A stretch of 64,000 nt of DNA from an uncultured bacterium (GTDB lineage Bacteria > Bacillota > Clostridia > Lachnospirales > Lachnospiraceae). The notes below the pieces were generated by a model. That model ran no database searches and was not told where the DNA came from. It saw nothing but the letters and a program-made list of their open reading frames with translations. Of the stretch, positions 4,671 through 57,097 are shown piece after piece; the first letter of the stretch is position 1; the number at the start of each line of letters is the position of its first letter. The stretch lies in NCBI GenBank assembly GCA_947177425.1, contig CAMWUN010000008.1, forward strand, positions 1-64,000, in the 5' to 3' direction. A program made the translations under genes and the position numbers.

Positions 4671-5738
4671 ATGAAAAAGTTAAAAAGCATTTTTAGTGAA
4701 ATTTTTATTGACGGCTTAAGCGGTATGGCTTCCGGCCTGTTCGCAACGCTGATTATCGGCACCATTATCCAGCAGGTGGGAAATCTGGTTCCGGGAACAG
4801 TGGGTACTTATATTTTTATGATGGGCAAAATGGCGGCGGCAGTAACCGGGGCAGGTATTGGATGCGGGGTTGCCGTGAAATTTAAGGAAAGTCCGCTGGT
4901 AGTGCTTTCTGCGGCGACTACCGGAATGGCAGGGGCATTTGCCAGCAAGATTACGGCAGGCACAGTGCTTGCGGAAGGAGCCGTTGTCCTGGCAGGGCCA
5001 GGGGAACCGCTGGGGGCTTTCATAGCGGCGATGGCAGGCATCTATGTGGGGCGTCTGGTTTCCGGCAGGACCAAGGTGGATATTCTGGTGACACCTTTTG
5101 CATGTATCGTATCAGGTTCCGCGGTAGGCCTGATTCTGGGACCTCCCATTTCTGCTTTTATGACATGGCTGGGGGGCATTATTAACTGGGGAACCGTGCA
5201 GGCCCCCTTCCTGATGGGCATTATTGTTTCCGTGCTGATGGGGATTATTCTTACCCTTCCAATCAGTTCCGCGGCGCTGGGGATTATTCTTGGGCTGGAA
5301 GGGATTGCGGCAGGCGCGGCCACCATAGGGTGCTGTGCCAATATGGTAGGATTTGCAGTGGCTTCTTACAGGGAAAATAAGGTAAACGGCCTGCTGGCCC
5401 AGGGTCTTGGCACCAGCATGCTGCAGATTGGCAATATTGTGAAAAAGCCCGTTATCTGGATGCCTGCAATTATTGCAAGCGCAGTGCTGGGACCGGTATC
5501 CACCATGCTGGTACACATGACGAACAATCCTACCGGATCCGGTATGGGTACGGCGGGGCTTGTGGGGCAGATCAACACTTATCAGACTATGGTGGGGCAG
5601 GGATATTCCCCTGCAGTGGTGCTGGCGGAAATTGCAGTGATGCACTTTATTCTTCCCGCCATCCTGGCCCTGGGCGTGTCGGAATTTATGCGCAAAAAAG
5701 GCTGGATAAAGGATGGGGATATGAAACTTTCTGTATAA
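4671..5738 (+). CDS. PTS EIIC-like membrane transporter (PTS_EIIC_2 type)
   Basis: 355 residues, about eight to ten hydrophobic segments rich in Gly and Ala, with a short basic N-terminus. Overall it resembles the PTS_EIIC_2 group of stand-alone membrane components, which lack adjoining EIIA/EIIB genes; none is present here. It follows niaR by 90 bp with its own promoter and a GGAG site. Members are annotated as sugar PTS permeases. The neighbourhood raises the alternative of a niacin or related vitamin transporter, which is inference from context only. Confidence 0.68.
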   Translation: MKKLKSIFSEIFIDGLSGMASGLFATLIIGTIIQQVGNLVPGTVGTYIFMMGKMAAAVTGAGIGCGVAVKFKESPLVVLSAATTGMAGAFASKITAGTVLAEGAVVLAGPGEPLGAFIAAMAGIYVGRLVSGRTKVDILVTPFACIVSGSAVGLILGPPISAFMTWLGGIINWGTVQAPFLMGIIVSVLMGIILTLPISSAALGIILGLEGIAAGAATIGCCANMVGFAVASYRENKVNGLLAQGLGTSMLQIGNIVKKPVIWMPAIIASAVLGPVSTMLVHMTNNPTGSGMGTAGLVGQINTYQTMVGQGYSPAVVLAEIAVMHFILPAILALGVSEFMRKKGWIKDGDMKLSV

Positions 5739-5783
5739 AAATAAGCATAAATATCCTTCAATTACCAGAAATGGTAAATAAAG

Positions 5784-5812
5784 TTGCGCTAATTTGTTAC
5801 CTGTGTTAAAAT
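5784..5812 (+). promoter_or_regulatory. sigma-A promoter for the LytM-like gene
   Basis: TTGCGC (5784-5789), 17-bp spacer, TAAAAT (5807-5812). It lies 130 bp before the coding start, leaving a leader that contains the long hairpin at 5835-5901. Confidence 0.55.
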
Positions 5813-5834
5813 AAGTTATGGTTAAGGACATTAG

Positions 5835-5901
5835 AAATTTCGCTTTCGGTCTTGCAAAAGCTTCCGCATGGGGCTTTTGCAGGAATCGGAAGCAGAAATT
5901 T
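5835..5901 (+). other. long hairpin in the 5' leader
   Basis: The 27-base 5' arm (5835-5861) pairs with 5873-5901 through AAATTTC/GAAATTT at the base and an 8-bp GCAAAAGC/GCTTTTGC upper stem; the loop is about 11 bases. No U-run follows, so it is not a plain terminator. It probably folds in the leader of the downstream gene. The function is unknown. Confidence 0.55.
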
Positions 5902-5944
5902 GTTATGTCGTTTACTATAATTAACCGGAGGTGACAAGTAAATT

Positions 5945-6655
5945 ATGGAGCGACGATCTAGAAGAAAAAGCAGGTATACGCTGGTTCTTATTGCGGAAAA
6001 AGGCGACGGCACCATGAATAAACATGCCATGAACTCCGCTGTATTTGGGGTTTTTGCCGTTATATTTTTCGTATTGTTCATAGGACTCGCCTGCAAAACA
6101 GTTTATGACTCAATCATCATAAAGGACATAAGAAAAGAGGTTGTGGAGCAGACAGTTATCATTAATAATCTGACAGATGAAAATGAGGCTCTGAGCGTGG
6201 AGAATGCCACGCTGACAAACAAAATCGGCGTCTTAAGCCAGACCGTGAGCCTGAAAGCGGAAGCAGAGGATGCATTATCCCAGGAAACCATCGAAAATGC
6301 CCTTCCAAAAGGATTTCCTTTAAGCGGTTCGGCAACTATGAAGGAAGCGGAGGAAGGCGATCCCATGCTGATATTTACGGCAAGCCCCGGCACCAATGTT
6401 ATTACGTCGGGAACCGGAACGGTGGTCAGCGTGGATATGGATGAGACATATGGCACCAGAGTGATACTGGATCATGGAAACGGTTATCAGTCTGTATACC
6501 GGAACAACGGAACCGCGCTGGTAAAGAATGGCGAGACTCTGGGCAAAGGTTATATCATTTTTTCTTTGGGGGATGATAACCAGGAACTTGGCTATCAGAT
6601 TATGCAGAACGATCAGTATATTGATCCAATGACATTAATTGACATAAACGGATAA
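5945..6655 (+). CDS. membrane-anchored LytM/M23-like protein, probably inactive
   Basis: 236 residues: a basic N-terminus, one membrane helix near residues 33-55, a coiled coil around 60-110 and a C-terminal LytM-like domain. The domain keeps the fold landmarks (TYGTRVILDHGNGYQSVY, ending LGYQIM) but lacks the usual HxH and the first zinc histidine, so it should not cleave peptidoglycan. Such degenerate LytM proteins usually activate amidases or act as division/sporulation scaffolds (SpoIIQ-like layout). The GGAGG lies 13 bases before the ATG, longer than ideal. Confidence 0.72.
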   Translation: MERRSRRKSRYTLVLIAEKGDGTMNKHAMNSAVFGVFAVIFFVLFIGLACKTVYDSIIIKDIRKEVVEQTVIINNLTDENEALSVENATLTNKIGVLSQTVSLKAEAEDALSQETIENALPKGFPLSGSATMKEAEEGDPMLIFTASPGTNVITSGTGTVVSVDMDETYGTRVILDHGNGYQSVYRNNGTALVKNGETLGKGYIIFSLGDDNQELGYQIMQNDQYIDPMTLIDING

Positions 6656-6676
6656 TCCTTTGGGATTATCCGTTTT
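6646..6676 (+). terminator. rho-independent terminator
   Basis: A perfect 13-bp stem (6646-6658 with 6663-6675), TTTG loop and a short U-run. It overlaps the last codons and stop of the LytM-like gene. Confidence 0.75.
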
Positions 6677-6713
6677 AGTTACAGTAAGCTGGTTCGTGAA
6701 GTGTAGCAGTATT

Positions 6714-7004
6714 TCAGGCATTATCCAGTCTTCCGAATACCAGTTCATAGCCGTCATTGCCGTAATTAAGGGAGCGGTTGACGCGGCTGATGGTGGCAGT
6801 GGAAGCACCGGTTTTTTCAGCTATTTCAAGGTAGGTTTTCTTATCTTTTAACATGGCGGCCACTTCATAACGCTGGGAAAGCGAGAGAAGTTCGTTGACC
6901 GTACATAAGTCTTCAAAAAAACTGTAACATTCTTCTTTATTTTCCAGACATAAAACAGCCTCAAACAGATGGTCTACAGCGGACGTCTGTATTTTCTTAT
7001 TCAT
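6714..7004 (-). CDS. yerC: YerC/YecD family TrpR-related protein
   Basis: 96 residues, close to the family norm. It has the TrpR-type helix-turn-helix: SLSQRYEVAAMLKDKKTYLEIAEKTG followed by the recognition helix ASTATISRVNRSL (described here in two parts). YerC-type proteins are predicted DNA-binding regulators whose targets are poorly known. The start has GGGAGG 8-10 bases upstream. It is transcribed alone, leftward. Confidence 0.88.
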   Translation of the reverse strand: MNKKIQTSAVDHLFEAVLCLENKEECYSFFEDLCTVNELLSLSQRYEVAAMLKDKKTYLEIAEKTGASTATISRVNRSLNYGNDGYELVFGRLDNA

Positions 7005-7112
7005 AATGATGGTACCTCCCCAAATATGTATTTGCCAAATGAAATTTTATCATATTAAAGTTTTAAAGTAAAGATGCAACTTCAAAATAGCATATTATAT
7101 AACGGATATGTT

Positions 7113-7139
7113 GTTACTGTTCACTCGGTGACCAGTAAC
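7113..7139. repeat. dispersed palindromic repeat, copy 2
   Basis: A 27-bp near-palindrome, GTTACTG.TCAC facing GTGA.CAGTAAC. It is the reverse complement, with two differences, of the core at 58-84. A fragment with the same flank (GACCAGTAAtGCTATGA) occurs near 4010-4026 against GACCAGTAAcGCTATGA at 7129-7145. Confidence 0.6.
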
Positions 7140-7226
7140 GCTATGAGCGGGCTTTAGACCATGAATAGTAACGATATGTTTGACAAGCAGTCCGCAATAT
7201 ATGAAAATAGGAGAGGGGTGAATTAT

Positions 7227-7454
7227 ATGTTTTTTGGAAAAAAGGGAAAAGAGAAGCTGGCGGCGGAGTATGATAAGGAAGGGAAGAAACCTGTGATTAG
7301 GGCGAGTATCTGTACAGGGGAAAAGACGGCGGGCTTCCGTAATGTGAAAACAGGGCAGATAGAGGAGTTGATGCTGATTACCGGGGAAAAGGATCTGGAA
7401 AGATTCATGGAACTTTACGGGGTGGAGAGAGAGGAAATCGAGACAGTCTGGTAA
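7227..7454 (+). CDS. small hypothetical protein
   Basis: 75 residues from the ATG at 7227, which has GGAGAGGGG about 10 bases upstream; an earlier in-frame ATG has no such site. It is highly charged (KKGKEK at the start, acidic end), with no membrane segment or recognised domain. It lies 24 bp before the exonuclease gene and is probably cotranscribed. Confidence 0.6.
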   Translation: MFFGKKGKEKLAAEYDKEGKKPVIRASICTGEKTAGFRNVKTGQIEELMLITGEKDLERFMELYGVEREEIETVW

Positions 7455-7478
7455 GACGGGAAAGACAGAGGAAAAGAG

Positions 7479-8192
7479 ATGAAGGAACGGAACAAAGGAA
7501 AAAGGCTGAATGATTATCTGAATGACTATGTGGTATTTGACCTGGAAACCACGGGAATCAATCAGAATGTTGACAGAATTATAGAAATATCGGCGGTGAA
7601 GGTCTGCGGTCATGAGATTGTAGGGGAATATTCCACGCTGGTAAATCCATGTATGCATATACCTGCGGCGGCAACTGCCGTTAATGGGATTACAGATGAT
7701 ATGGTGGCGGATGCGCCCGGCATTAAGGAAGCTGTTGAAGGATTTGTGGCATTTATTGGCAGCAGTGTGCTTGTGGGACATAACATTCACACTTTTGACA
7801 CAAATTTTATTTATGATGCGATATGGGAAGAGATGGGGAAAGAGTTGAAAAATGATTACATCGACACCCTGTATATGGCAAGGCGGTATATCCCCCAGCT
7901 TTCCCACCACAGGCTTACAGATGTGGCGGCTTACTTTCAGATAAGTACATCAGGAGCCCATAGGGCATTGTCTGACTGCATTATGAATCAGAAATGTTAT
8001 GAGGAAATTGGGCAACTTTTTCTTGAAATGAAAAAAACAGAAAAAGAAAAACAGAAAAACAGTGGAGAGGAAAACGGGGACGACGGTAAATGCCCTTTCT
8101 GCAGCGGCCTTTTAGTGAAACGCAAAGGCAGATACGGATACTTTTACGGATGTGAAGAATTCCCCAGATGCCGGTTTACCAGAAACGCTTAA
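7479..8192 (+). CDS. DnaQ-like 3'-5' exonuclease with C-terminal topoisomerase-type zinc ribbon
   Basis: 237 residues. Residues 15-185 are a DEDDh exonuclease: Exo I FDLETTG, Exo [13 protein letters not shown], Exo III HRALSD. A charged linker leads to residues 203-235, a four-cysteine ribbon (CPFC ... [11 protein letters not shown]) of the type at the end of topoisomerase I. The ribbon would help bind single-stranded DNA, suggesting a repair or proofreading-like nuclease. The combination is uncommon but both parts are clear. Confidence 0.88.
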
Positions 8193-8250
8193 GAAAAATG
8201 AAAAATTCCAGTGTGCCGGCCGCTGGCACGGGGACCGATTGCGCAAAAAG

Positions 8251-8283
8251 CGGGAAGCATGGGTAAATACAGGCTTCCCGTTT
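8251..8283 (+). terminator. probable terminator after the exonuclease gene
   Basis: An 8-bp stem CGGGAAGC/GCTTCCCG (8251-8258 with 8273-8280) is followed by TTT. The loop is long (14 bases) and the U-run short. Confidence 0.5.
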
Positions 8284-8330
8284 CAGGCATTATAGCAGAT
8301 TGATATGTTTTGCAATATGGTCATGAAAAA

Positions 8331-8978
8331 TCAGGGCTGCGTTTTGGGGCTGGCTTCCGGGCGCCCCGCCTTTTCGGCCGGAGAAGCGGCAGTGCGGAAA
8401 GCGTCTATCATTTTCTCAATCAGCAGCTTTTTCACATAAACATCGTAGCTGAGCATGGAGATAAAAGAAAAAAGCTGGAGGAATTCCTGGTCTTCTTCGG
8501 GGGCGTCCTTAAAGGTATCATGGGAAATATTAAATTTCCTGATGATATTTTCCTTGAGGTCATCGATTTCGTCTTTTTCCAGGCTGAACACTTCTTCATA
8601 AACAGAGCCTAAGTCAGGCTGTACGCTGGTGTGGAAATACTTCTGCGTAAGGGGCTTTAGGAGAGTCTGTATGTCGCCAATGGAGAGAATCCCTTTGTAA
8701 TAGTAAATAAATATCAGTAGAATCATGTGATCCTTGCTGTACTTTTTCTTAACGGGAGGAGGAAGCAGGTCATTTTTGGCATAATTGTTAATCATGGTTT
8801 TGGTAAGAATTTTGTCTTCCTTTGGATTCCGGGTAGTGCTCCTTAATTTCTTTTCCATAAAGGTAGTCACCTGGTCCATGTACAGGTCAATATTGGGAAT
8901 ATCATCTAAGTCCACATGCTGTATTCTGCCCAGACTCTCTATAATGCTGTTCAGTAAATCTTCTTGATTGATAGTCAT
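8331..8978 (-). CDS. DUF1836 domain protein
   Basis: 215 residues from ATG 8978 (AGGGTGA about 9 bases upstream; a GTG at 8990 is also possible). The central part has a MerR-like helix-turn-helix, TKTMINNYAKNDLLPPPVKK, followed by the hydrophobic DUF1836 segment MILLIFIYYYKG. DUF1836 proteins are common in Clostridia and presumed regulators; no target is known. The C-terminal tail is low-complexity, Ala/Pro-rich. Confidence 0.8.
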   Translation of the reverse strand: MTINQEDLLNSIIESLGRIQHVDLDDIPNIDLYMDQVTTFMEKKLRSTTRNPKEDKILTKTMINNYAKNDLLPPPVKKKYSKDHMILLIFIYYYKGILSIGDIQTLLKPLTQKYFHTSVQPDLGSVYEEVFSLEKDEIDDLKENIIRKFNISHDTFKDAPEEDQEFLQLFSFISMLSYDVYVKKLLIEKMIDAFRTAASPAEKAGRPEASPKTQP

Positions 8979-9183
8979 ATAAATTTTCACCCTGTCCCTG
9001 TCATATGATAGTATTTTATTATAGAAGCATCTATGATGGTACTTGTGATATACATTATATAGTATTTAAAACTATATGACAAGTTATAAAAAATTTTAAA
9101 TTATGAGAAAAAAAATAATTTTTTGAAGACATTTAAAAACAGATTACGTTATATCAGGTGAAAGTAAGAAAGAAGAAAGCGGG

Positions 9184-9726
9184 GTGGAAGAAATAAGCAC
9201 TGTGGTGAAAACGGCCGGCTGTGCGGAAAGCAGGCTTGCCGAACTGATTGATATGTATGATAAACTTGTTTTTTCCATCTGCTATAAGCTGACCGGCGAC
9301 TACTTTACTGCGGAGGATTTGACACAGGAGACTTTCCTTTCGGCATTCCAGAAGTATGAAACTTTTGACGGAGAAAATGAAAAGGCGTGGATATGCAGGA
9401 TAGCCACCAATAAGAGCATTGACTTTTTAAGGAGCGCCAGCCGCAGAAGTGTGCCTGTGGAAGATACATTTTTTGAACTGGAGACAGAAAAAAGAGGATC
9501 CCCGGAGGATATCTGTATGGAAGAGGAAATCAAAAACCAGCTTGCCATGCGGTGTGACGGCCTGAAACCTCCTTATAATCAGGTGGCAAGGGATTATTAT
9601 CTGAAGGAATTAAGCCCGAAGGAGATTGCGGCGAAACAGGGGAAAAGCATTAAAACCATCCAGACCCAGATTTACAGGGCCAGGCAGATGCTTAAGGAGA
9701 TTTACAGAAAGGAGGAACCGGCATGA
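9184..9726 (+). CDS. ECF-type RNA polymerase sigma factor
   Basis: 180 residues with sigma region 2 (DYFTAEDLTQETFLSAF) and region 4 (KELSPKEIAAKQGKSIKTIQTQIYRAR). The GTG start is the only one covering region 1/2; its ribosome site is weak. Its stop overlaps the next start (ATGA), so it is translationally coupled to the membrane protein that follows, as in sigma/anti-sigma pairs. Confidence 0.9.
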   Translation: MEEISTVVKTAGCAESRLAELIDMYDKLVFSICYKLTGDYFTAEDLTQETFLSAFQKYETFDGENEKAWICRIATNKSIDFLRSASRRSVPVEDTFFELETEKRGSPEDICMEEEIKNQLAMRCDGLKPPYNQVARDYYLKELSPKEIAAKQGKSIKTIQTQIYRARQMLKEIYRKEEPA

Positions 9727-10193
9727 GGGAATATCCTACAGACGAAGAACTGGAACTATTTATACAACAGATGGAACAGCAGGAATTGTATGCGCCGAAG
9801 CATATGAAAGAGCAGATACTGGCGCAGGCATTTCCCAGACAAACCGTGGAGGCGCTGCCCAAGTCCGGGAGCGGGACAGGAACAGTCAGGCTCTTTACGT
9901 ATCGTCTTAAAATTGCCGCCGGGATGGCAGCCGCACTTATGATGCTGACACTTTTGCCCGGGATTCTTGGAAACGGCAGATACGCAGAGGACAGAAGCTG
10001 GGAAGAAAAAGCGGACCAGAGGGTAAAGGAATGGGAGATGGAAGAGCAGAACAAAGTGGATGTAAATTATATGCTGAATGAGGGGATGCGCAGGGCAGAC
10101 CAGAAAATCAATTTCTGGGTTGGACAGATGAATGATTTGCAGATAGAAAATCTATTTAAAAAAGATAATGGAGGTAACAATAATGAAAACTAA
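9723..10193 (+). CDS. putative membrane anti-sigma factor
   Basis: 156 residues: a cytoplasmic N-terminal part (1-60), one membrane helix (about 62-85) and a C-terminal outside part rich in charged residues. This is the usual layout of anti-sigma factors coupled to ECF sigma genes, and the start overlaps the sigma stop. There is no recognised zinc-binding anti-sigma motif (no HxxxCxxC). The role is inferred from position and topology. Confidence 0.6.
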   Translation: MREYPTDEELELFIQQMEQQELYAPKHMKEQILAQAFPRQTVEALPKSGSGTGTVRLFTYRLKIAAGMAAALMMLTLLPGILGNGRYAEDRSWEEKADQRVKEWEMEEQNKVDVNYMLNEGMRRADQKINFWVGQMNDLQIENLFKKDNGGNNNEN

Positions 10194-11676: not shown

Positions 11677-11700
11677 GTAAGTTGTTTACTACACCAATTT
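11665..11700. other. attL, left prophage junction
   Basis: Host sequence up to the 5-bp common core ACTGT (11672-11676) joins phage sequence GTAAGTTG followed by TTTACTACACC (11685-11695). That 11-bp block is the inverted partner of GGTGTAGTAAA at attR. The serine recombinase stop codon (11689-11691) lies inside this arm. Confidence 0.85.
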
Positions 11701-13056
11701 TGTCAGAAAATTAAATCCACTGATCTGGTGGGTTTCTTTGTCAATCTGTATATCCTTTATTGTGCTTTTCCAGAAAGCCTGTTTATGCGATTTATCCAGT
11801 TTAAGGTATAATTCCTGCCAGTTTCCGCTAAAAGCCCTGATAAGGCCCCTATAGTCCTCCAGGGACACACATTTGGAAGTGTCGCACTGGGAAAGCTTTT
11901 TCTCTAAAAGTTCATATTGTTCATCGTAATAGCTTTCCTTTATCCGTCCTTTTTGAAATAAGATGTTAAGGCGGTCCATTTCCCTGCGCAGGGCTTCCGG
12001 GTCTTCCTGCTTTTGGATTTGTTGTTGTTTAAACTCTATGTCCGCAAGTTCTTCGTGGAGCCGGTCAGAAACATGCGTCAGCATATATTCCTCTATTTTG
12101 TATTCGGTAAAGTGGGCACAGCTATGCCGGCCGAATTTGTTTCCACAGCGGTATTTAATATAAATGCTTTCGCCGCCGTTTTTAAGTTTTTGCTTTTTCC
12201 GGTACCCGGTATAATTGTTTCCACACCAGGGGCACTTAATAAGGGAACTGAATATGTAAGGTTCGTAGTTGCCGGCAGAATATACTTTTGTTGTGGTAAT
12301 CTGTCTGATTTTTTCAAATTGCTCCGGCGTAATATAGGGATCACAGTAATTTAGGTTATCCTTATCTTTCCCTGCATAGGTTTCATTTTTGAAGAGACGG
12401 TCAACTTTATTGCTTGACGGCGCAGCATCCCCGTAGGTATCATTCAGATACTTGATGGTGGAGCGGATGGAATAGCAGGTAAAGTAGTGGCGGTAAGCAT
12501 CGTCTACAATATGGGAGACGGCTTCGTCCTTAACCAGCCGGTTATTTACAACCTTGTATCCATAGCAGGCACATTTTCCGCTGGTAACTTCGCCAATAGA
12601 ACGTTTATAATCAAGGACGGCCTTTATACGTTCCGAAGTCCGGTCACATTCCGCCTGGTTAACAGATAGCATGATATTAATGACCATCTGTCCATTGGCG
12701 GTAGAAGAGTCATAATTTTCAAAGATAGTCTTCCAGTAACAGTTGTGGGCCTTGAGAATTTCCTCGGTAATGTTGTAGTCTTTGATGTTGCGGAACCAGC
12801 GGTCAAGCTTCGTGACAAGAATCATGTCTATCTTATCCTGCTTAACATCCTCAAGTAACCGCAGAAGCCCCTTTCGGAATTTCATGGACTTGCGGGCAGA
12901 AATGCCCTCATCGGCATAGAAGCCGACTATTGTATAATTGTTTGCTTCCGCAAACTCCCTAAGGGCTTTCCTCTGGGCTGGCAGAGACAGGCCGTTTATG
13001 TGCTGTTCTTCTGTGCTGACGCGGATGTAAATGGCGCATCGAAGTATTTTAGACAT
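11689..13056 (-). CDS. int: large serine recombinase (phage integrase)
   Basis: 455 residues from ATG 13056 (AGGAGG upstream). The resolvase domain is at 1-150, with the nucleophile Ser in YIRVSTEEQ (about residue 14). A recombinase domain and a zinc ribbon (CPWCGNNY ... CGNKFGRHSC) follow, then a coiled coil at about 340-400. Such enzymes join attP and attB at a short core and need a separate directionality factor to excise. The gene ends 12 bp from the core, its stop inside the attP arm. It almost certainly integrated this element. Confidence 0.95.
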   Translation of the reverse strand: MSKILRCAIYIRVSTEEQHINGLSLPAQRKALREFAEANNYTIVGFYADEGISARKSMKFRKGLLRLLEDVKQDKIDMILVTKLDRWFRNIKDYNITEEILKAHNCYWKTIFENYDSSTANGQMVINIMLSVNQAECDRTSERIKAVLDYKRSIGEVTSGKCACYGYKVVNNRLVKDEAVSHIVDDAYRHYFTCYSIRSTIKYLNDTYGDAAPSSNKVDRLFKNETYAGKDKDNLNYCDPYITPEQFEKIRQITTTKVYSAGNYEPYIFSSLIKCPWCGNNYTGYRKKQKLKNGGESIYIKYRCGNKFGRHSCAHFTEYKIEEYMLTHVSDRLHEELADIEFKQQQIQKQEDPEALRREMDRLNILFQKGRIKESYYDEQYELLEKKLSQCDTSKCVSLEDYRGLIRAFSGNWQELYLKLDKSHKQAFWKSTIKDIQIDKETHQISGFNFLTKLV

Positions 13057-13106
13057 AAATATTATCCTCCTGTATGTTTTTCTGGGCATAAAAATGCCCT
13101 GACAGC

Positions 13107-14386: not shown

Positions 14387-15457
14387 CTACTGCAGATACC
14401 GAGAGGCAACAGCAATTAAACGTTCCCTATATTGGTAGAGGTCATTCAAAGAATCTAAGTAAATTCTTTCAAAATTTTTATTTTCATCGGGTATAAGAAG
14501 TTGCATTCTCTTTCCATCAAGGCTTAGGCGGCAAATAGGTTTGCGATTGTTATTTTTGTATAATATACCAAAATAACTTTCCGTGTCCCGGTGGGTAATA
14601 TCATTAATATCAATCGTGCCGGCAAGCAGCCCTCTTACGATGAAGAATCCCTGTAGTTCTTCTTCAGTGGTAACAATTTTGCTAACAGGCTCGTTTGACT
14701 CTGGCTCCAATGCGGGAGTTTCCCCAGCTTCTTTTTCCTTCTCATTCTCGTTATTTAAAGCTGATGAAATTTTCTGGTTTAAAAGTTCGTTAATGAAGGA
14801 ATTAAAAGACTTCTTTATTATGGGTTTAAAACTGTCAATAATTTTCTGGGTCTTCACTCCTTCATAGGTAGCAGTTAATACAAAACGGGCAAAATCATCG
14901 GACGGGTTGTCTAACTCCGATTTTAAAAGATCTTTCATCAAGCTGGTATATTTCAGCTCGGATGCAACGCTAAGTATGTTATCTTGGTCAAACTCTGTTT
15001 TGCAGAACTTTTTCAAGGATGGAATCAGAGAGTCTTTCAAGTTCTCCAGATTGATTTCAAGGAATGGGGTAAGATCCATTTTATTAGATTCGTCCAGGTC
15101 GGTATAAAACTTATAAATAAGTCCGTTCGTAAGGATTCCGAACTTGGCGGAGGTAGTACCGAAATACCTAAATAGCTGGGAGGAATGCTTATCTAAAGAG
15201 TCGGTACATGATTTGCATTCAATCAATATCACAGGTTCGTCATTAATGATGATGGCATAATCAACTTTTTCTCCCTTTTTAATACCAACATCGGCTGTAT
15301 ATTCCGGGCAGAATTCCAGGGGGTTGAAAACGTCATAACCAAGCAACTGGAAGAAAGGAACAATCATGGACATTTTGGTTGCTTCCTCTGTCATAATGTT
15401 GGGCTTTACTGATGTAACTCTCTTTGCTAATGATAATAGTTCTTCGTTGAATCCCAT
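14387..15457 (-). CDS. stand-alone type I restriction HsdR_N-like nuclease-domain protein
   Basis: 356 residues. The N-terminal half is an HsdR_N-type PD-(D/E)xK domain: acidic residue in EKVDYAIIIN, then VILIECKS. The C-terminal half has no helicase motifs, unlike a full HsdR of about 1000 residues, and no HsdM/HsdS genes lie nearby. A clear GGAGG precedes the ATG. As prophage cargo beside the lysogeny region it may exclude other phages, but a DNA repair or unknown nuclease role is equally open. Confidence 0.75.
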   Translation of the reverse strand: MGFNEELLSLAKRVTSVKPNIMTEEATKMSMIVPFFQLLGYDVFNPLEFCPEYTADVGIKKGEKVDYAIIINDEPVILIECKSCTDSLDKHSSQLFRYFGTTSAKFGILTNGLIYKFYTDLDESNKMDLTPFLEINLENLKDSLIPSLKKFCKTEFDQDNILSVASELKYTSLMKDLLKSELDNPSDDFARFVLTATYEGVKTQKIIDSFKPIIKKSFNSFINELLNQKISSALNNENEKEKEAGETPALEPESNEPVSKIVTTEEELQGFFIVRGLLAGTIDINDITHRDTESYFGILYKNNNRKPICRLSLDGKRMQLLIPDENKNFERIYLDSLNDLYQYRERLIAVASRYLQ

Positions 15458-28950: not shown

Positions 28951-29898
28951 ATGAGAATTGGATTGATAGATGCTGACAGTCATAATTTCCCCAATTTGCC
29001 GTTGATGAAGTTATCTGCATGGCATAAACAGCAAGGGGATAGCGTGGAATGGTACGAGCCTTTATTACATGGCTTTCCAAATACTCCGCTTGATAAAGTA
29101 TATATATCAAAAGTATTTAGATTCACTCCTGATTATCCATATTATGTTAATGCGTTGGAAGTTTCAAAGGGGGGCAGCGGATATTGCATCAGCCTTGAAA
29201 ACGGAAAAGAGGTCTACCATAAGGAAAATGATAACCAACTTCCCTATAAGGTTGAACACATATACCCAGATTACAGCCTATATCCCAAACTGGCAAAAGA
29301 TACTGCTTATGGCTTTATGAGCCGGGGGTGCCCGAGAGGGTGCGATTTCTGCCATGTTGAAGCAAAAGAGGGACGCATGGCTTATAAAGTTGCTGATTTG
29401 TCGGAATTTTGGAGAGGGCAGAAAAACATTGTTTTACTTGATCCGAACCTGATAGCTTGTAAGGAATGGAAAGACATTCTCCAACAGCTTATTGACTCTC
29501 ATGCGTGGGTGGACTTTTCGCAAGGTATTGATATTCGCCTTATGACGGAAGAAAAAGCCGAGATGATAAAGCGTATCAGGACAAAAAACATTCATTTTGC
29601 GTGGGACAGGTACGGGGATAAGGAAAAAATTATTCCAAGATTCAAGGAATTCAAGCAGATTACACAATGGGATAAACGGAAGCTGACAGTATATGTACTG
29701 ACAAATTTCAACACTACAATAGAGCAGGATTTAGAACGGATATATATTTTGCGGGATTTAGGATACTGGCCATATGTGATGATATATGGCAAAGAGCATA
29801 CAAGACCGGGGGATACAGTCCGCAGAATGCAGAGGTGGGTTAATATGAGAGCAGTATTTGAAAGTGTGAAAAGATTTGAGGATTATAAAACAGGATAG
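28951..29898 (+). CDS. radical SAM protein
   Basis: 315 residues. An N-terminal part (1-105) resembles the cobalamin-binding-like fold often found before radical SAM domains (MRIGLIDADSHNFPNL). The cluster motif is RGCPRGCDFCHVE, a CxxxCxxC set binding 4Fe-4S. Further landmarks are VLLDPNLIA and FSQGIDIRLM. The substrate is unknown. It lies between small phage accessory genes with no maturase or peptide precursor visible, so DNA/RNA base modification or metabolism are both possible. Confidence 0.85.
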   Translation: MRIGLIDADSHNFPNLPLMKLSAWHKQQGDSVEWYEPLLHGFPNTPLDKVYISKVFRFTPDYPYYVNALEVSKGGSGYCISLENGKEVYHKENDNQLPYKVEHIYPDYSLYPKLAKDTAYGFMSRGCPRGCDFCHVEAKEGRMAYKVADLSEFWRGQKNIVLLDPNLIACKEWKDILQQLIDSHAWVDFSQGIDIRLMTEEKAEMIKRIRTKNIHFAWDRYGDKEKIIPRFKEFKQITQWDKRKLTVYVLTNFNTTIEQDLERIYILRDLGYWPYVMIYGKEHTRPGDTVRRMQRWVNMRAVFESVKRFEDYKTG

Positions 29899-53300: not shown

Positions 53301-53897
53301 ATGGAAAAAGATGCAGTTAGAAACGAAGGCACTATTATAACTAAAAAAGGTATGCAACTGATAAGCAAGCTTTTAGCATCAGGCAGTACATTAAATTTTA
53401 CAAAGGTAGAAATTGGGTCAGGCCATGCAGATGAAGGAACAGATCTTGAAAGTCTGACGCGGCTGGTATCCTATGTACGGGACGGACACATTGCAAAATG
53501 TTTTCCTTTGCCAGAAAAAAACATCGCCTCTGTTGTATGTCAGATTAGTTCGATTGGTACAATAAATGGATTTGTGGCAACGGAGGCGGGGTTATATGCG
53601 GAGGACCCGGACGAAGGGGAAATACTGTATGCGTATCTGGATATGTGGGATGATCCGCAATATATTTATGCGGAAAGCAATGCTATAAGTAAGTTTTTTG
53701 AAATTACAATGAGTGTAGTGATTTCAAAGGTTGAAAATGTAACAGCGGCTATCAGCCCATACAGCATGATTTCGCGTGAAGAATTTAATGAACTGCTTGA
53801 GCAGATAAGCAAAATGGGGAAGACAACTATTAACACAGCAGAGGCAGAGTTTGAAGAAAATGAAATTAGGCTTATAGTAAATGAAATGCCATATTAA
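53301..53897 (+). CDS. tail-collar/fibre attachment protein
   Basis: 198 residues. N-terminal ITKKGMQLISKLLASGSTLNFTKVEIGSG (in part) and ATEAGLYAEDPDEGEILYAY match phage tail-collar fibre N-terminal domains. It would connect the baseplate to the fibre encoded next. Confidence 0.75.
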   Translation: MEKDAVRNEGTIITKKGMQLISKLLASGSTLNFTKVEIGSGHADEGTDLESLTRLVSYVRDGHIAKCFPLPEKNIASVVCQISSIGTINGFVATEAGLYAEDPDEGEILYAYLDMWDDPQYIYAESNAISKFFEITMSVVISKVENVTAAISPYSMISREEFNELLEQISKMGKTTINTAEAEFEENEIRLIVNEMPY

Positions 53898-53914
53898 GGA
53901 AGGAGGTATGCGGG

Positions 53915-55366
53915 GTGGAAACAGAACAGCTATACGCAAACGGAAATCCAGTCTGCCCAACAACTAATTATGAAAATGACAATGCCGAACAGCGGATAAG
54001 AAACGCAGAGATCCTTCTTGACGAAATAGCGGAACGCGTGGCAACGCGCCTGCTGGAAAAGACAGATATTGCGGAGTGGGCGAAACAGGCACGCAAGCCG
54101 TCCTATACAGCGTCAGAAGTAGGTGCGGATGCTTCGGGAAGCGCCCAGAGGGCGCTGCTGGATGCGAAGGAATATTCTGACAGTACATACCAGCAGGCCA
54201 CAGGCTATACGGATACGGCAATTGCCCGGCTCGTAGGTTCGGCCCCGTCCACCCTTGACACGCTGGGAGAGATTGCCGCCGCAATGGAAGATAACGAGTC
54301 AGTGGTTTTGGCGCTGGAAGCTGCCATTGGAAACAAGGCGGATGAAAAAGAATACCAGGCCCATGCAGGAAACAGGACGATGCACGTTACGGCATCGGAA
54401 CGGGAAAAATGGAATGAAGCAGCAGACAGGATCCCTTCCGCGCCGGAAGATATAGGGGCCCTTCCTTCTGGTGCCAGCGCAGTTTCTGCAGACAAATGGA
54501 AAACTCCCAGGAATATAAACGGCATGAACGTGGATGGCAGTGGGAACAGGACAAATTATGGGACATGTTCCACCGCAGCGGCCACAGCAGCAAAAGTGGT
54601 ATCATGTAACGGATTCGGGCTGGTGACAGGCGCGGAGATCACAGTTAAATTTACCGTGACAAATACAGCAGCAAACCCGACGTTGAATGTCAACAGCACA
54701 GGCGCAAAGCCGGTCTGGTACCGGGGAGCGGCCATAGCTGCCGGGTATCTTGCCGCGAACCGTACATATATATTCAGGTACAATGGTACACAGTATGAAT
54801 TAGTGGGAGATATTGACACCAATGAAAAATATTCCGCCATGACAGGTGCAACGGAATCCGCAGGAGGAAAAGCCGGACTGGTTCCAGCTCCTGCCAAAGG
54901 CGCACAGGGGAAGTATTTAAGGGGTGACGGCACATGGGTCGCACCGGCCACCACCCTTGCAGGGACGGAGCAGGGAATACCGCTGGACCAGACGATGGGG
55001 AAGATACTGAATGATAAGGTTAGTGAGATAATTAGCAATTTACAATCCCTGTCAACTGCGGAAGTGATAACAATGACCGCTAATGCGTCATGGGTAAAAA
55101 AAGGTGATGTACTATGCTTTAAAATAGCAAACAGATGCTTTTTCCAATTTATAGAGGTTGAGTTTGCTAAAGAATCCGCTAATACGGAGTACAAAAAAAC
55201 ACTGTTCTGGACACTTGGTAAAAGTGTTGGCTATGAAAAGGTTTTTCTTCTATATCCGATAGACGGCGGTCAACCAATCCGGCTGCTGTGTTCTGGCAAC
55301 AAAATATATGGACATTATAGTGGTGCATATTTAAATATGGATTATTTTGGATTGCTGGTCATGTAA
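53915..55366 (+). CDS. tail fibre protein, active C-terminal variant
   Basis: 483 residues from GTG 53915 (GGAGGT upstream). Shaft: helical and collagen-poor repeats (SAPSTLDTLGEIAAAMED, MHVTASEREKW), then a beta-rich middle ending GKYLRGDGTWVAP. From about residue 371 (ISNLQSLSTAEV) to the end lies a receptor-binding-like domain. The DNA at this boundary carries the 16-bp repeat that recurs inverted at 55723-55738, so the C-terminus is probably exchangeable. Confidence 0.82.
   Translation: METEQLYANGNPVCPTTNYENDNAEQRIRNAEILLDEIAERVATRLLEKTDIAEWAKQARKPSYTASEVGADASGSAQRALLDAKEYSDSTYQQATGYTDTAIARLVGSAPSTLDTLGEIAAAMEDNESVVLALEAAIGNKADEKEYQAHAGNRTMHVTASEREKWNEAADRIPSAPEDIGALPSGASAVSADKWKTPRNINGMNVDGSGNRTNYGTCSTAAATAAKVVSCNGFGLVTGAEITVKFTVTNTAANPTLNVNSTGAKPVWYRGAAIAAGYLAANRTYIFRYNGTQYELVGDIDTNEKYSAMTGATESAGGKAGLVPAPAKGAQGKYLRGDGTWVAPATTLAGTEQGIPLDQTMGKILNDKVSEIISNLQSLSTAEVITMTANASWVKKGDVLCFKIANRCFFQFIEVEFAKESANTEYKKTLFWTLGKSVGYEKVFLLYPIDGGQPIRLLCSGNKIYGHYSGAYLNMDYFGLLVM
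55027..55042 (+). repeat. fibre inversion repeat, left copy
   Basis: GATAATTAGCAATTTA inside the fibre gene at the start of the variable C-terminal domain. It matches the complement of 55723-55738 at 15 of 16 bases. Confidence 0.65.
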
Positions 55367-55374
55367 ACTGACTA

Positions 55375-55740
55375 TTAATTTGTACAGAGTGTCAATATGA
55401 AACCACGGTACCATGTTGCATCATGCGTTTTCTCAAAAGTCCTTAAATATACACTTTTGGAATGTTCCACAGTACATTCAATTGTAACGGCTGAATCATC
55501 AGCTTGGTCATTCACCAAACCTATTGTATCGTGTGCGAAACTAAAACCAGCAGTGGTAATATCACATAATTTATAATTCGTCCAAGGTTTGAGGGCTTTA
55601 CACCCAAATGCAAGACTGAATAGTCCTATCTTTCCGATTTTATAGAGTTTACAGTACTGAAATTCCGTTACAATACTTGTATTCCAATTTGCAGTAAGCA
55701 AAGTAACCGTAGTTATGGCTGATAAATTGCTATTTATCTT
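55375..55740 (-). pseudogene. silent alternative fibre C-terminal domain (inverted cassette)
   Basis: An open frame with no start or ribosome site ends 8 bp from the fibre stop, facing it. Its first residues, INSNLSAITTVTLLTAN, align with IISNLQSLSTAEVITMTAN of the active fibre, and the remaining ~105 residues form a comparable but different domain ending FILTLCTN. Inversion of the 680-bp segment between the repeats would fuse this domain in frame to the fibre shaft. Confidence 0.7.
55723..55738 (-). repeat. fibre inversion repeat, right copy
   Basis: On the minus strand GATAAATAGCAATTTA, one mismatch from the copy at 55027-55042. With one more flanking A and G the match is 17 of 18. Confidence 0.65.
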
Positions 55741-55794
55741 ACAAAATAAATCAAAATAACCGGGGAAGTCCCGGAGAAAGAAGGTAAAAGAAGT

Positions 55795-56187
55795 ATGAAA
55801 AATATATTGGTTTTAAAAGACGGCTCCGAAATAGGGCTGGAAACAGGCGCCAGCCTGTCAGACATGAAAGTCCTGTCCGATACAAAGCCAGATATGCTGT
55901 CTGCATGGAATAAACTCACAGAAAACAATCTGTCAGAAGTGCAGATAAAAGATTGTGACGGGCTGGTAGTGGCCACATACCAGAATCTTGTCCTGGATTC
56001 GGAAACTTCCATATTAAATAAAGACGGGACCGTCCTTACCAGTTTCAGGCTCCGCGGAAAAACGGAGGTTGAAGTGCTGGGGGAGAGGGTTGCAGTGCTG
56101 GAAAACGGGTTTGAGGTACATGGCGGCGCGATCGGCGATCTGGGGCTGGCAGTCAGTGAACTGGCAGAAGAAAGGGGGCAGGCATAA
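55795..56187 (+). CDS. phage tail-region hypothetical protein
   Basis: 130 residues; GGAGAAAGAAGG upstream. Strand-turn-strand N-terminus (MKNILVLKDGSEIGLE) and LGERVAVLENGFEVHGG end. Small proteins of this form lie between fibre genes and the XkdX-like gene in many Firmicutes phages. Its exact job is unknown. Confidence 0.6.
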   Translation: MKNILVLKDGSEIGLETGASLSDMKVLSDTKPDMLSAWNKLTENNLSEVQIKDCDGLVVATYQNLVLDSETSILNKDGTVLTSFRLRGKTEVEVLGERVAVLENGFEVHGGAIGDLGLAVSELAEERGQA

Positions 56188-56315
56188 TGGGGAGATTCTA
56201 CGGACTTAAGGTACTTGATGGAAGCATGGAAGCCGGGGAGGTCCCGAAATTGTGGAGGGCAGCAACGGAACGCTGGCTGGAATCTTATGCCGCGGGGCAG
56301 GAAGGTGGGAAATAA
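56187..56315 (+). CDS. XkdX-like small protein
   Basis: 42 residues; the ATG overlaps the preceding stop. MGRFYGLKVLDGSM ... VPKLWRAATERWL fits the XkdX family, always found near phage tail fibre and holin genes. Unknown function. Confidence 0.7.
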   Translation: MGRFYGLKVLDGSMEAGEVPKLWRAATERWLESYAAGQEGGK

Positions 56316-57097
56316 TGGATAAATATGCGGTAAAAGAGATTATAAAAAGGCGTAAGGGAAGGAACTATACTTTCCCGATAGGGGCTAAAGCAACAAACAT
56401 AGAGACTGATAACACCCATCAGTTTGTAACAAAGGACGAAAAAAACAAAATAGGGGAGATCGACGGTATAAAACAGGCTTTTCAGGATGGTTGTAATGTG
56501 CTGGTGTCCGCATGTACAACCTATGGGGCGACACCGGAAAGCAACAGCCCGCCACATATCGCCGATGCCATAAGGGCTATCTATAATAAAAGATACAATG
56601 ACGGCTACAGTGCGGGAAGGCTGCAGGGGCGGAAGGATGTAATTGCAGACCCGGGAGCTTATGGGATTAATGTCGGATATACGATTGAGCAGATGAAAGT
56701 CGGTATCAGTACCCATGACTGGTCAGAATATGATATGTACTCAAAGTGCTTCACAGCCCCGAATGACGGGGTGCTGGTTGTCGGGAATACTGTCCATGCA
56801 GGGATCGGGGTGATATGGGGAGCCGAGGGAAAACATGAAATATCCGTCACACATAAGGGGCAGGTTGTTCTTGATAAGACTGTAGATGTATATGGCGGCC
56901 CGGATGGATATGCACAGAATAACCCTTATCCCATTATAACAAACCAGCAGTACCCGTTAAAAGCTGGTGAACAGCTTATTGTAAAAGCAAAATTTACCGG
57001 AAGATGGAAGACAGATGAAGACGGCAGCCATGGATCTGGAACAGCATGTTCTTTTGGCGGGGATTCTGCGCTGACCTGGGTTCATATTTACACTTAA
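56315..57097 (+). CDS. putative receptor-binding or tail-tip protein
   Basis: 260 residues; the ATG overlaps the previous stop. The N-terminal part has a HTH-like NTHQFVTKDEKNKIGEIDG stretch common in fibre proteins; the C-terminal 110 residues are a beta-rich domain (CFTAPNDGVLVVGNTVHAG). Probably a second adhesin. Confidence 0.55.
   Translation: MDKYAVKEIIKRRKGRNYTFPIGAKATNIETDNTHQFVTKDEKNKIGEIDGIKQAFQDGCNVLVSACTTYGATPESNSPPHIADAIRAIYNKRYNDGYSAGRLQGRKDVIADPGAYGINVGYTIEQMKVGISTHDWSEYDMYSKCFTAPNDGVLVVGNTVHAGIGVIWGAEGKHEISVTHKGQVVLDKTVDVYGGPDGYAQNNPYPIITNQQYPLKAGEQLIVKAKFTGRWKTDEDGSHGSGTACSFGGDSALTWVHIYT

What the first reader, a model, noticed from the sequence alone, without database searches (positions are those of the whole stretch)
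53915..55740. Probable invertible tail-fibre C-terminus (host-range switch)
Seen: the fibre gene (plus) and a start-less open frame (minus) end 8 bp apart, facing each other. Their first residues align (IISNLQSLSTAEVITMTAN against INSNLSAITTVTLLTAN), and at that point the DNA carries GATAAnTAGCAATTTA as inverted repeats (55027-55042, 55723-55738; 15 of 16). Known: Mu, P1 and some Bacteroides phages switch fibres by inversion. Inference: flipping the 680 bp would replace the receptor-binding end. No dedicated invertase is encoded nearby, which makes the source of the recombinase an open and interesting point.
Basis: partly seen in the sequence, partly recalled or inferred. Interest (0 to 1): 0.78.

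Follow-up and report, generated by a model that had tools for sequence, protein, structure and literature searches.

The report
Phage tail-fibre switch missing its recombinase
A gut-bacterium prophage carries two interchangeable ends for its tail fibre, and a close relative carries the same fibre with the other end plus the enzyme that probably swaps them, so this copy looks like a host-range switch that has lost its own switching enzyme.

Summary
Fibre gene 53915-55366 (+) and a frame without ATG, 55375-55740 (-), converge 8 bp apart, with 15-of-16 inverted repeats at 55027-55042 and 55723-55738.

A close relative settles the interpretation. In a prophage of Lachnospiraceae bacterium 1XD21-87 (L167) the same fibre (94.6% DNA identity) runs up to the repeat and continues into the homologue of the window's MINUS cassette; the homologue of its PLUS cassette lies silent at the far end. 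So inversion here has happened in nature. L167 has four sites, four cassettes and, between the pairs, a XerA-like tyrosine recombinase gene. Distant relatives show that layout around tail fibres or type I restriction hsdS genes.

The window keeps the two outer sites and one pair but not the recombinase; no close copy was found in its genome. Best explanation: a reduced tyrosine-recombinase fibre shufflon, formed by deletion between like-oriented sites, now locked or dependent on an enzyme in trans. Past inversion is shown by comparison; loss and locking are inferred; no reads were examined.

The parts
53915..55366 (+). tail-fibre gene (GTG start, 483 aa); constant part up to about 55042, then the expressed C-terminal cassette
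   Evidence: tail and tail-fibre PHROGs, best phrog_1197 E 6.3e-11; 94.6% DNA identity to L167 over window 53856-55042
55027..55042 (+). left crossover site GATAATTAGCAATTTA (fibre side)
   Evidence: counterpart of L167 site 1 at 7113-7128
55043..55366 (+). expressed C-terminal cassette ('D type'), 84% aa identical to the cassette that is silent in L167 (frame ending at 9355, site 9676-9691)
   Evidence: dN/dS 0.13
55375..55740 (-). silent C-terminal cassette without ATG ('A type'), 84% aa identical to the cassette expressed on the fibre in L167
   Evidence: dN/dS 0.20
55723..55738 (-). right crossover site GATAAATAGCAATTTA; with its neighbours it forms the dyad GATAAAT-AGCA-ATTTATC
   Evidence: outer flank matches L167 site 4
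55741..56187 (+). first sequence outside the switch: short spacer and gene 55795-56187; window 55723-56682 is 98.1% identical to L167, up to the end of the L167 contig
11689..13089 (-). large serine integrase, the only match to PF00239 or PF00589 on this contig; probably the prophage integrase, not the fibre invertase

Best explanation
The locus is a reduced tail-fibre shufflon of a contractile-tailed Lachnospiraceae prophage. A constant fibre N-part is joined at a short crossover site to one of two alternative C-terminal cassettes that face each other; recombination between the inverted sites swaps which one is expressed. The site type is that of a XerA-like tyrosine recombinase. In relatives that gene lies between two convergent cassette pairs (site, pair, site, recombinase, site, pair, site). 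In the window the recombinase and one pair are missing while the outermost site flanks remain, as recombination between two like-oriented sites would leave. With the enzyme gone, the prophage is most likely locked on its present fibre end. Shown by comparison: past inversion at this site, the crossover region, the recombinase gene in relatives, its absence from the window's contig. Inferred: that this enzyme acts on these sites, the direction (loss, not gain), deletion by the enzyme itself, present locking, and the effect on host range.
For: (1) L167 carries the opposite arrangement. Its fibre is 94.6% identical up to window 55042, the last base of the site, then continues into the homologue of the window's minus cassette (86.9% DNA, 84% aa); the homologue of the window's plus cassette is silent at the far end (84% aa). 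(2) Crossover mapping: the fibre-side flank keeps T and the far flank keeps A at position 6 of the site in both phages, while bases after TTTA follow the cassette, so exchange lies inside TAGCAATTTA; in L208 and L209 the bases after AGCAA already differ between cassettes, which suggests TAGCAA. (3) L167 has sites at four places in alternating orientation (7 matches with up to 3 mismatches; 0 of 200 shuffles reach 7) and a recombinase frame between the pairs (NF040815 243.4 bits against cut-off 220). (4) L171 in IMG/VR, with a 78%-identical recombinase, has three copies of GATAAACAGCAATTTA and start-less cassettes. (5) Of 20 regions fetched around relatives of the recombinase, 13 show a 12-mer repeated in both orientations beside the gene; sites in four alternating places are seen in L211, L213, L215, L216, L218 and L219 with fibre-like cassettes, and in L223, L225, L226 and L227 with hsdS-like ones. 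(6) Own genome, all 15 candidates scored: 3 matches at E<=1e-3, 25-35% identical, none near the 76% and 65% of the best relatives. (7) dS is 0.055-0.086 in the backbone and 0.42-0.74 in the cassettes, dN/dS 0.13-0.20 in the cassettes: both cassettes look like selected coding sequence, exchanged apart from the backbone.
Against: The window's pair is D-like with A-like, whereas L167 pairs A with B and C with D (minus cassette 84% aa to A, 68% to C). One deletion from L167 as it stands does not give the window; an extra cassette exchange is needed. Only one close relative is held, so polarity rests on the layout of distant relatives. The recombinase could lie in the missing part of the draft genome (95.3% complete). 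The sites look intact, so use in trans is not excluded. No reads were examined. In 7 of the 20 recombinase regions the 12-mer filter found no repeated site; some of these show inverted repeats by a looser look. The architecture was seen in only 1 of the 19 other fibre-relative loci (L011), and in none of four larger regions of G133 and G027.
Confidence: 0.78

Rival explanations
1. The two-cassette switch is still active, served in trans by a recombinase of the host or of another prophage in the same cell.
For: Sites and both cassettes are intact and the silent cassette shows purifying selection. The genome holds 13 PF00589 and 19 PF00239 matches. Trans action was proposed for a recombinase-less inverted locus of a bifidobacterial prophage (PMC6109161, section 8 read).
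Against: No close copy of the L167 recombinase in the own genome. In the roughly 3.4-kb surroundings of the own recombinases I saw no inverted pair of TAAA-N6-TTTA sites.
Confidence: 0.22
2. The two-cassette form without recombinase is ancestral; the L167 lineage later gained the recombinase and a second pair.
For: A and C in L167 are paralogues (75-76% in the aligned blocks), so a cassette was duplicated at some time. Only one close relative is held.
Against: Four alternating sites around the recombinase recur in distant relatives (fibre-like L211, L213, L215, L216, L218, L219; hsdS-like L172, L173, L223, L225, L226, L227), so the array with an internal recombinase is probably older than the window-L167 split (backbone dS 0.055-0.086).
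Confidence: 0.12
3. The draft assembly dropped the recombinase and the second pair, which exist in the real prophage or in part of the population.
For: The genome is a 142-contig draft, and shufflons are known to assemble poorly from short reads (recalled).
Against: The region is continuous, the repeats are only 16-17 bp, and no other contig of the draft carries a close copy of the recombinase.
Confidence: 0.07
4. The prophage's own large serine integrase carries out the inversion.
For: It is the only PF00239 or PF00589 match on the contig. L085's 9.2-kb record also shows a large serine recombinase near an invertible fibre.
Against: Large serine integrases act on distinct attP/attB sites and need a directionality factor for the reverse (recalled). 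The site type matches loci that carry a tyrosine recombinase.
Confidence: 0.03
5. Two unrelated convergent genes with a chance repeat.
For: The repeat is short: 2 of 2000 codon shuffles do as well, and loose matches to the motif are not enriched in the window.
Against: In L167 the homologue of the minus-strand frame is fused to the fibre at exactly this repeat.
Confidence: 0.01

Closest known systems
Rin shufflon of Bifidobacterium prophages (PMC6109161: passages, section 8 read); also reported in Eggerthella lenta prophages (PMC8778435, passages)
   Same: Constant receptor-binding protein N-part, alternative C-terminal cassettes, short crossover sites, XerD-like tyrosine recombinase, orientation variants among relatives
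   Different: There the recombinase flanks the cassettes on one side and the site is an asymmetric 11-bp sequence (TTCCCTAACCC). Here the site is an AT-rich near-dyad, cassettes come in convergent pairs, the recombinase (in relatives) is in the middle of the array, and the window lacks it
Recombinase-less inverted locus of Bb423phi2 against 689b-1 (PMC6109161, section 8)
   Same: A segment of about 500 bp (here about 700) inverted between two related prophages at a short repeat, no recombinase beside it
   Different: There the enzyme is unknown; here a close relative reveals the likely original enzyme inside the array
hsdS (type I restriction) inversion systems with a tyrosine recombinase, e.g. 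pneumococcal PsrA (search listing only)
   Same: L172-L174, L223 and L225-L227 carry recombinases about 43-44% identical to the L167 enzyme and a like site type, TAAAYGATAATTTA; six of these seven show four alternating sites (not L174). Methylase_S confirmed for L172, L173 and L223, the others by eye
   Different: Cassettes are DNA-recognition domains, not fibre ends. PsrA itself was not compared here
Mu Gin, P1 Cin, p15B Min (serine invertases; named in PMC6109161, details recalled)
   Same: Alternative tail-fibre ends exchanged by inversion
   Different: Serine enzyme; no small serine invertase on this contig

Membership tests
Tyrosine-recombinase phage fibre/RBP shufflon (Rin-like) | constant fibre part with a crossover site inside the gene | tested here: met
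Tyrosine-recombinase phage fibre/RBP shufflon (Rin-like) | at least one further C-terminal cassette without its own ATG, in frame at an inverted copy of the site | tested here: met
Tyrosine-recombinase phage fibre/RBP shufflon (Rin-like) | alternative arrangement seen in a relative, with the junction at the site | tested here: met
   L167
Tyrosine-recombinase phage fibre/RBP shufflon (Rin-like) | dedicated tyrosine recombinase beside or within the array | tested here: not met
   none on the window's contig, no close copy in its genome; present in L167, L171, L208, L209. The window is therefore called a reduced derivative, not a full member
Tyrosine-recombinase phage fibre/RBP shufflon (Rin-like) | switching within one clone | not testable with these tools
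   no reads available
Tyrosine-recombinase phage fibre/RBP shufflon (Rin-like) | sequence relation of the recombinase to Bifidobacterium Rin | not tested
   Rin sequence not fetched
Gin/Cin/Min serine inversion systems | small serine invertase gene next to the segment | tested here: not met
   the only match on the contig is the large serine integrase about 42 kb away

The most novel reading that the evidence does not exclude
In Lachnospiraceae prophages the fibre-shufflon recombinase lies between like-oriented copies of its own site, so the same reaction that shuffles host range can now and then excise the recombinase itself and freeze the phage on one fibre; the window would be such a frozen product. 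The same kind of recombinase-and-site module is used both for phage tail fibres and for hsdS of type I restriction systems, so attack and defence diversity in these bacteria would run on one kind of engine.
Probability: 0.4. Interest if true: 0.66.

Novelty: new variant of a known kind. Interest (0 to 1): 0.55.

Why it matters
The authors of PMC6109161 (section 8) ask how an armless tyrosine recombinase flips inverted sites while avoiding deletion between direct ones. This locus and L167 look like the after and the before of such a deletion, which makes the question testable with natural sites and one enzyme. The work also describes a set of Lachnospiraceae fibre shufflons with a recognisable site and a central recombinase, and links them by recombinase and site to hsdS switches. 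I found no paper on Lachnospiraceae fibre shufflons in the searches. These cover open-licence PMC only, and asked for six terms at once, so this is weak evidence of absence.

Tried and rejected
No close relative of the fibre, the minus cassette, the upstream tail protein or the downstream gene was confirmed in IMG/VR; the phage collection gave 2 partial fibre matches and none for the minus cassette. In 299 family genomes the fibre matched 21, the own included, mostly over parts of it; the minus cassette matched the own genome only. The detector for fibre, convergent frame and repeat found the architecture in 1 of the 19 loci L010-L028 (L011). The motif GATAAWTAGCAATTTA with up to 2 mismatches gave 11 places in the own genome against 3 for the reversed control; 3 of the 11 are this locus.

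AlphaFold2 models of both cassettes were poor (mean pLDDT 40.8 and 39.2), so no fold search was run and no fold is claimed. Neither the Pfam nor the PHROGs scan gave a family for the cassettes. BLASTP between the two cassettes gave nothing.

I first suspected that the shared core TAAAYNC.AATTT in IMG/VR fibres meant one enzyme. The detector found the architecture in 6 of the 80 loci (L070, L072, L073, L075, L076, L085; L072 and L076 show the same repeat at the same place), and I dropped its other hits there (such as L078, L080, L107, L117, L126, L135), whose frames end far apart or overlap, as probable chance. The six records carry different recombinases (tyrosine in those of L070, L073, L075; serine in those of L072, L076, L085), so part of the likeness is probably coding (LNTNL/INSNL), and I do not count these loci as the same system. 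A host recombinase with matching sites beside it was sought and not found.

Full report
WHAT IS THERE. The fibre gene runs from GTG 53915 to 55366 (+). A frame on the other strand is open over 55375-55740 and holds no ATG. Their ends are 8 bp apart and face each other. The repeat GATAAnTAGCAATTTA occurs at 55027-55042 (+) and 55723-55738 (-), 15 of 16. Both copies sit in the same codon phase. GC falls from 53.4% in the constant fibre part to 36.4% in the segment and rises to 47.9% outside. Of 2000 codon shuffles, 2 gave an equally good in-phase match; loose matches to the motif (up to 3 mismatches) are not more common in the window than by chance (31 of 100 shuffles reach the count). The fibre matches tail and tail-fibre PHROGs; the C-terminal ends match no family. 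The prophage has terminase, portal, major head, tail sheath, tape measure, baseplate, holin and endolysin genes, so it is a contractile-tailed phage with a seemingly complete structural set. Its integrase is a large serine recombinase at 11689-13089.

THE CLOSE RELATIVE. One scan of the GTDB species genomes with the fibre gave one locus, L167, contig QXWO01000045.1 of Lachnospiraceae bacterium 1XD21-87. Window 53856-55042 matches it at 94.6%, ending at the last base of the left site; window 55723-56682 matches at 98.1%, starting at the right site. Between these points L167 differs: its fibre continues into the homologue of the window's minus cassette (86.9% DNA identity over 381 nt; 84% aa), while the homologue of the window's plus cassette is silent at the far end (84% aa). 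So the two phages show the two orientations of one switch.

WHERE THE CROSSOVER LIES. At position 6 of the site both phages have T on the fibre side and A on the far side, whichever cassette is attached. Bases just after TTTA follow the cassette: CAA or CAG with the D type, TCN with the others. Exchange is therefore within TAGCAATTTA. In L208 and L209 the bases after AGCAA vary between cassettes, which points to TAGCAA. The mismatch between the window's arms is the same as between L167's outer sites, so it is not decay after loss of the enzyme. Several sites have the form of a short dyad around a central spacer, as tyrosine recombinase sites do (recalled, not tested).

THE ENZYME. L167 has sites at four places in alternating orientation (7113+, 7801-, 8980+, 9676-): cassette A (on the fibre) facing B, then the recombinase frame 7748-8860 (about 327 aa from its first ATG), then C facing D. 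The protein has the Phage_integrase and SAM-like N-terminal domains and passes the NCBIfam cut-off of NF040815, XerA type (243.4 against 220 bits). L171 in IMG/VR holds a 78%-identical enzyme with three GATAAACAGCAATTTA sites and start-less cassettes. That this enzyme acts on these sites is inferred from position and from the recurring pairing of enzyme and site type; no assay exists here.

THE WIDER GROUP. With the enzyme as query, 57 of 397 family genomes match at E<=1e-40; the own genome does not (which scored 5 of its 15 candidates; one search scored all 15 and found 3 distant matches). I fetched 20 of the first 21 places in that list, leaving out one of G393. A 12-mer repeated in both orientations beside the gene was found in 13 of 20 by a filter that required TTTA or ATTT in the 12-mer, so it leans to AT-rich sites; the repeat of L221 is of another kind. 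Reading the frames at the sites, I judge L208, L209, L211, L213, L215, L216, L218 and L219 fibre-like; only L208 and L219 were tested against Pfam and PHROGs, with tail or tail-fibre matches, the rest are by eye. L223, L225, L226 and L227 are hsdS-like; Methylase_S was confirmed for L223, and for L172 and L173 from the phage collection, the rest by eye. Of the seven regions that the filter missed, L210, L212, L214 and L220 look fibre-like and L224 hsdS-like by eye; L217 and L222 are unclear. On a quick FastTree tree the hsdS enzymes form one group (0.947; 1.000 with L222 added) apart from the fibre enzymes; several deep nodes are weak, one at 0.13. Sites differ between groups but share the AT-rich form: fibre TAAATAGCAATTTA, hsdS TAAAYGATAATTTA.

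WHAT HAPPENED TO THE WINDOW. It keeps the flanks of L167's first and fourth sites but has one pair and no recombinase. In L167 sites 1 and 3, and sites 2 and 4, are direct repeats; recombination between either two removes the recombinase and one pair. That would leave the window's anatomy in one step. It does not fit to the letter: the window's pair is D-like with A-like, and its minus cassette is nearer to A (84% aa) than to C (68%). Cassettes seem to be exchanged apart from the backbone: dS is 0.42 and 0.74 for the two cassettes against 0.086 and 0.055 for the constant fibre part and the downstream gene, so a cassette swap is plausible, but it is an added assumption. dN/dS of 0.20 for the silent and 0.13 for the expressed cassette says that both have been used as protein, possibly mostly before the loss.

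IS IT STILL SWITCHING? Unknown. In the own genome the nearest relatives of the enzyme are 25-35% identical; the examined surroundings of the own recombinases show no matching inverted pair. The genome is a draft (95.3% complete). I think locking is more likely than action in trans, about 3 to 1 (judgement).

COMPARISON WITH THE KNOWN. The Rin shufflon of Bifidobacterium prophages is the closest described system that I found; the same paper reports a recombinase-less inverted locus and asks why armless recombinases do not delete between direct sites (PMC6109161: passages, section 8). A Rin system is also reported in Eggerthella lenta (PMC8778435, passages). A genome-wide survey of inversions reports hsdS switches in 13 species and prophage inversions, particularly at tail fibres, in 4 species of Proteobacteria (PMC5903667, passages). 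The window works like a Rin-type switch in anatomy and history but fails the test of carrying the recombinase, so I file it as a reduced derivative.

SCORES. What looks new is the before-and-after pair, the central-recombinase array in Lachnospiraceae phages, and the link to hsdS switches.

Noticed in passing
L064 (G051:C173:34000-44340), 5845-7270 and 9187-9824: Another Lachnospiraceae prophage with a perfect 21-bp inverted repeat at its fibre and a convergent start-less frame, plus two further start-less cassettes beyond the lysis genes; a tyrosine recombinase on the same contig (L062 16610-17737) lies about 22 kb away and is only 28% identical to the L167 enzyme.
   Followed up: partly
L172, L173, L174, L223-L227: hsdS (type I restriction) cassette arrays whose tyrosine recombinase and site type resemble those of the fibre shufflons; three (L172-L174) come from records filed as human faecal phage.
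   Followed up: partly
L220 (G264, same genus as the window's host), 5500-9050: A locus with an endolysin 69% identical to the window's carries a 45%-identical recombinase inside inverted repeats at a gene related (35-40%) to window 56252-57097, a different gene from the window's fibre.
   Followed up: partly
L072 and L076 (IMG/VR): Fibre switches with the same 39-nt repeat in records that carry a small serine recombinase (197-aa frame; the record of L076 also a 465-aa frame) and no PF00589 match: the same fibre architecture with another enzyme class.
   Followed up: partly
G000 contig C70 (L037, L038): Two tyrosine recombinase genes on opposite strands lie in a long inverted repeat (alignment score 218 by my script) in the host genome.
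   Followed up: no
window 28951-29898: A radical SAM protein (phrog_9298, E 7e-110) in the prophage.
   Followed up: no
window 14387-15457 (-): Protein matching phrog_4225 'endonuclease' (E 4e-140) near the integrase; its role in the prophage is unclear.
   Followed up: no
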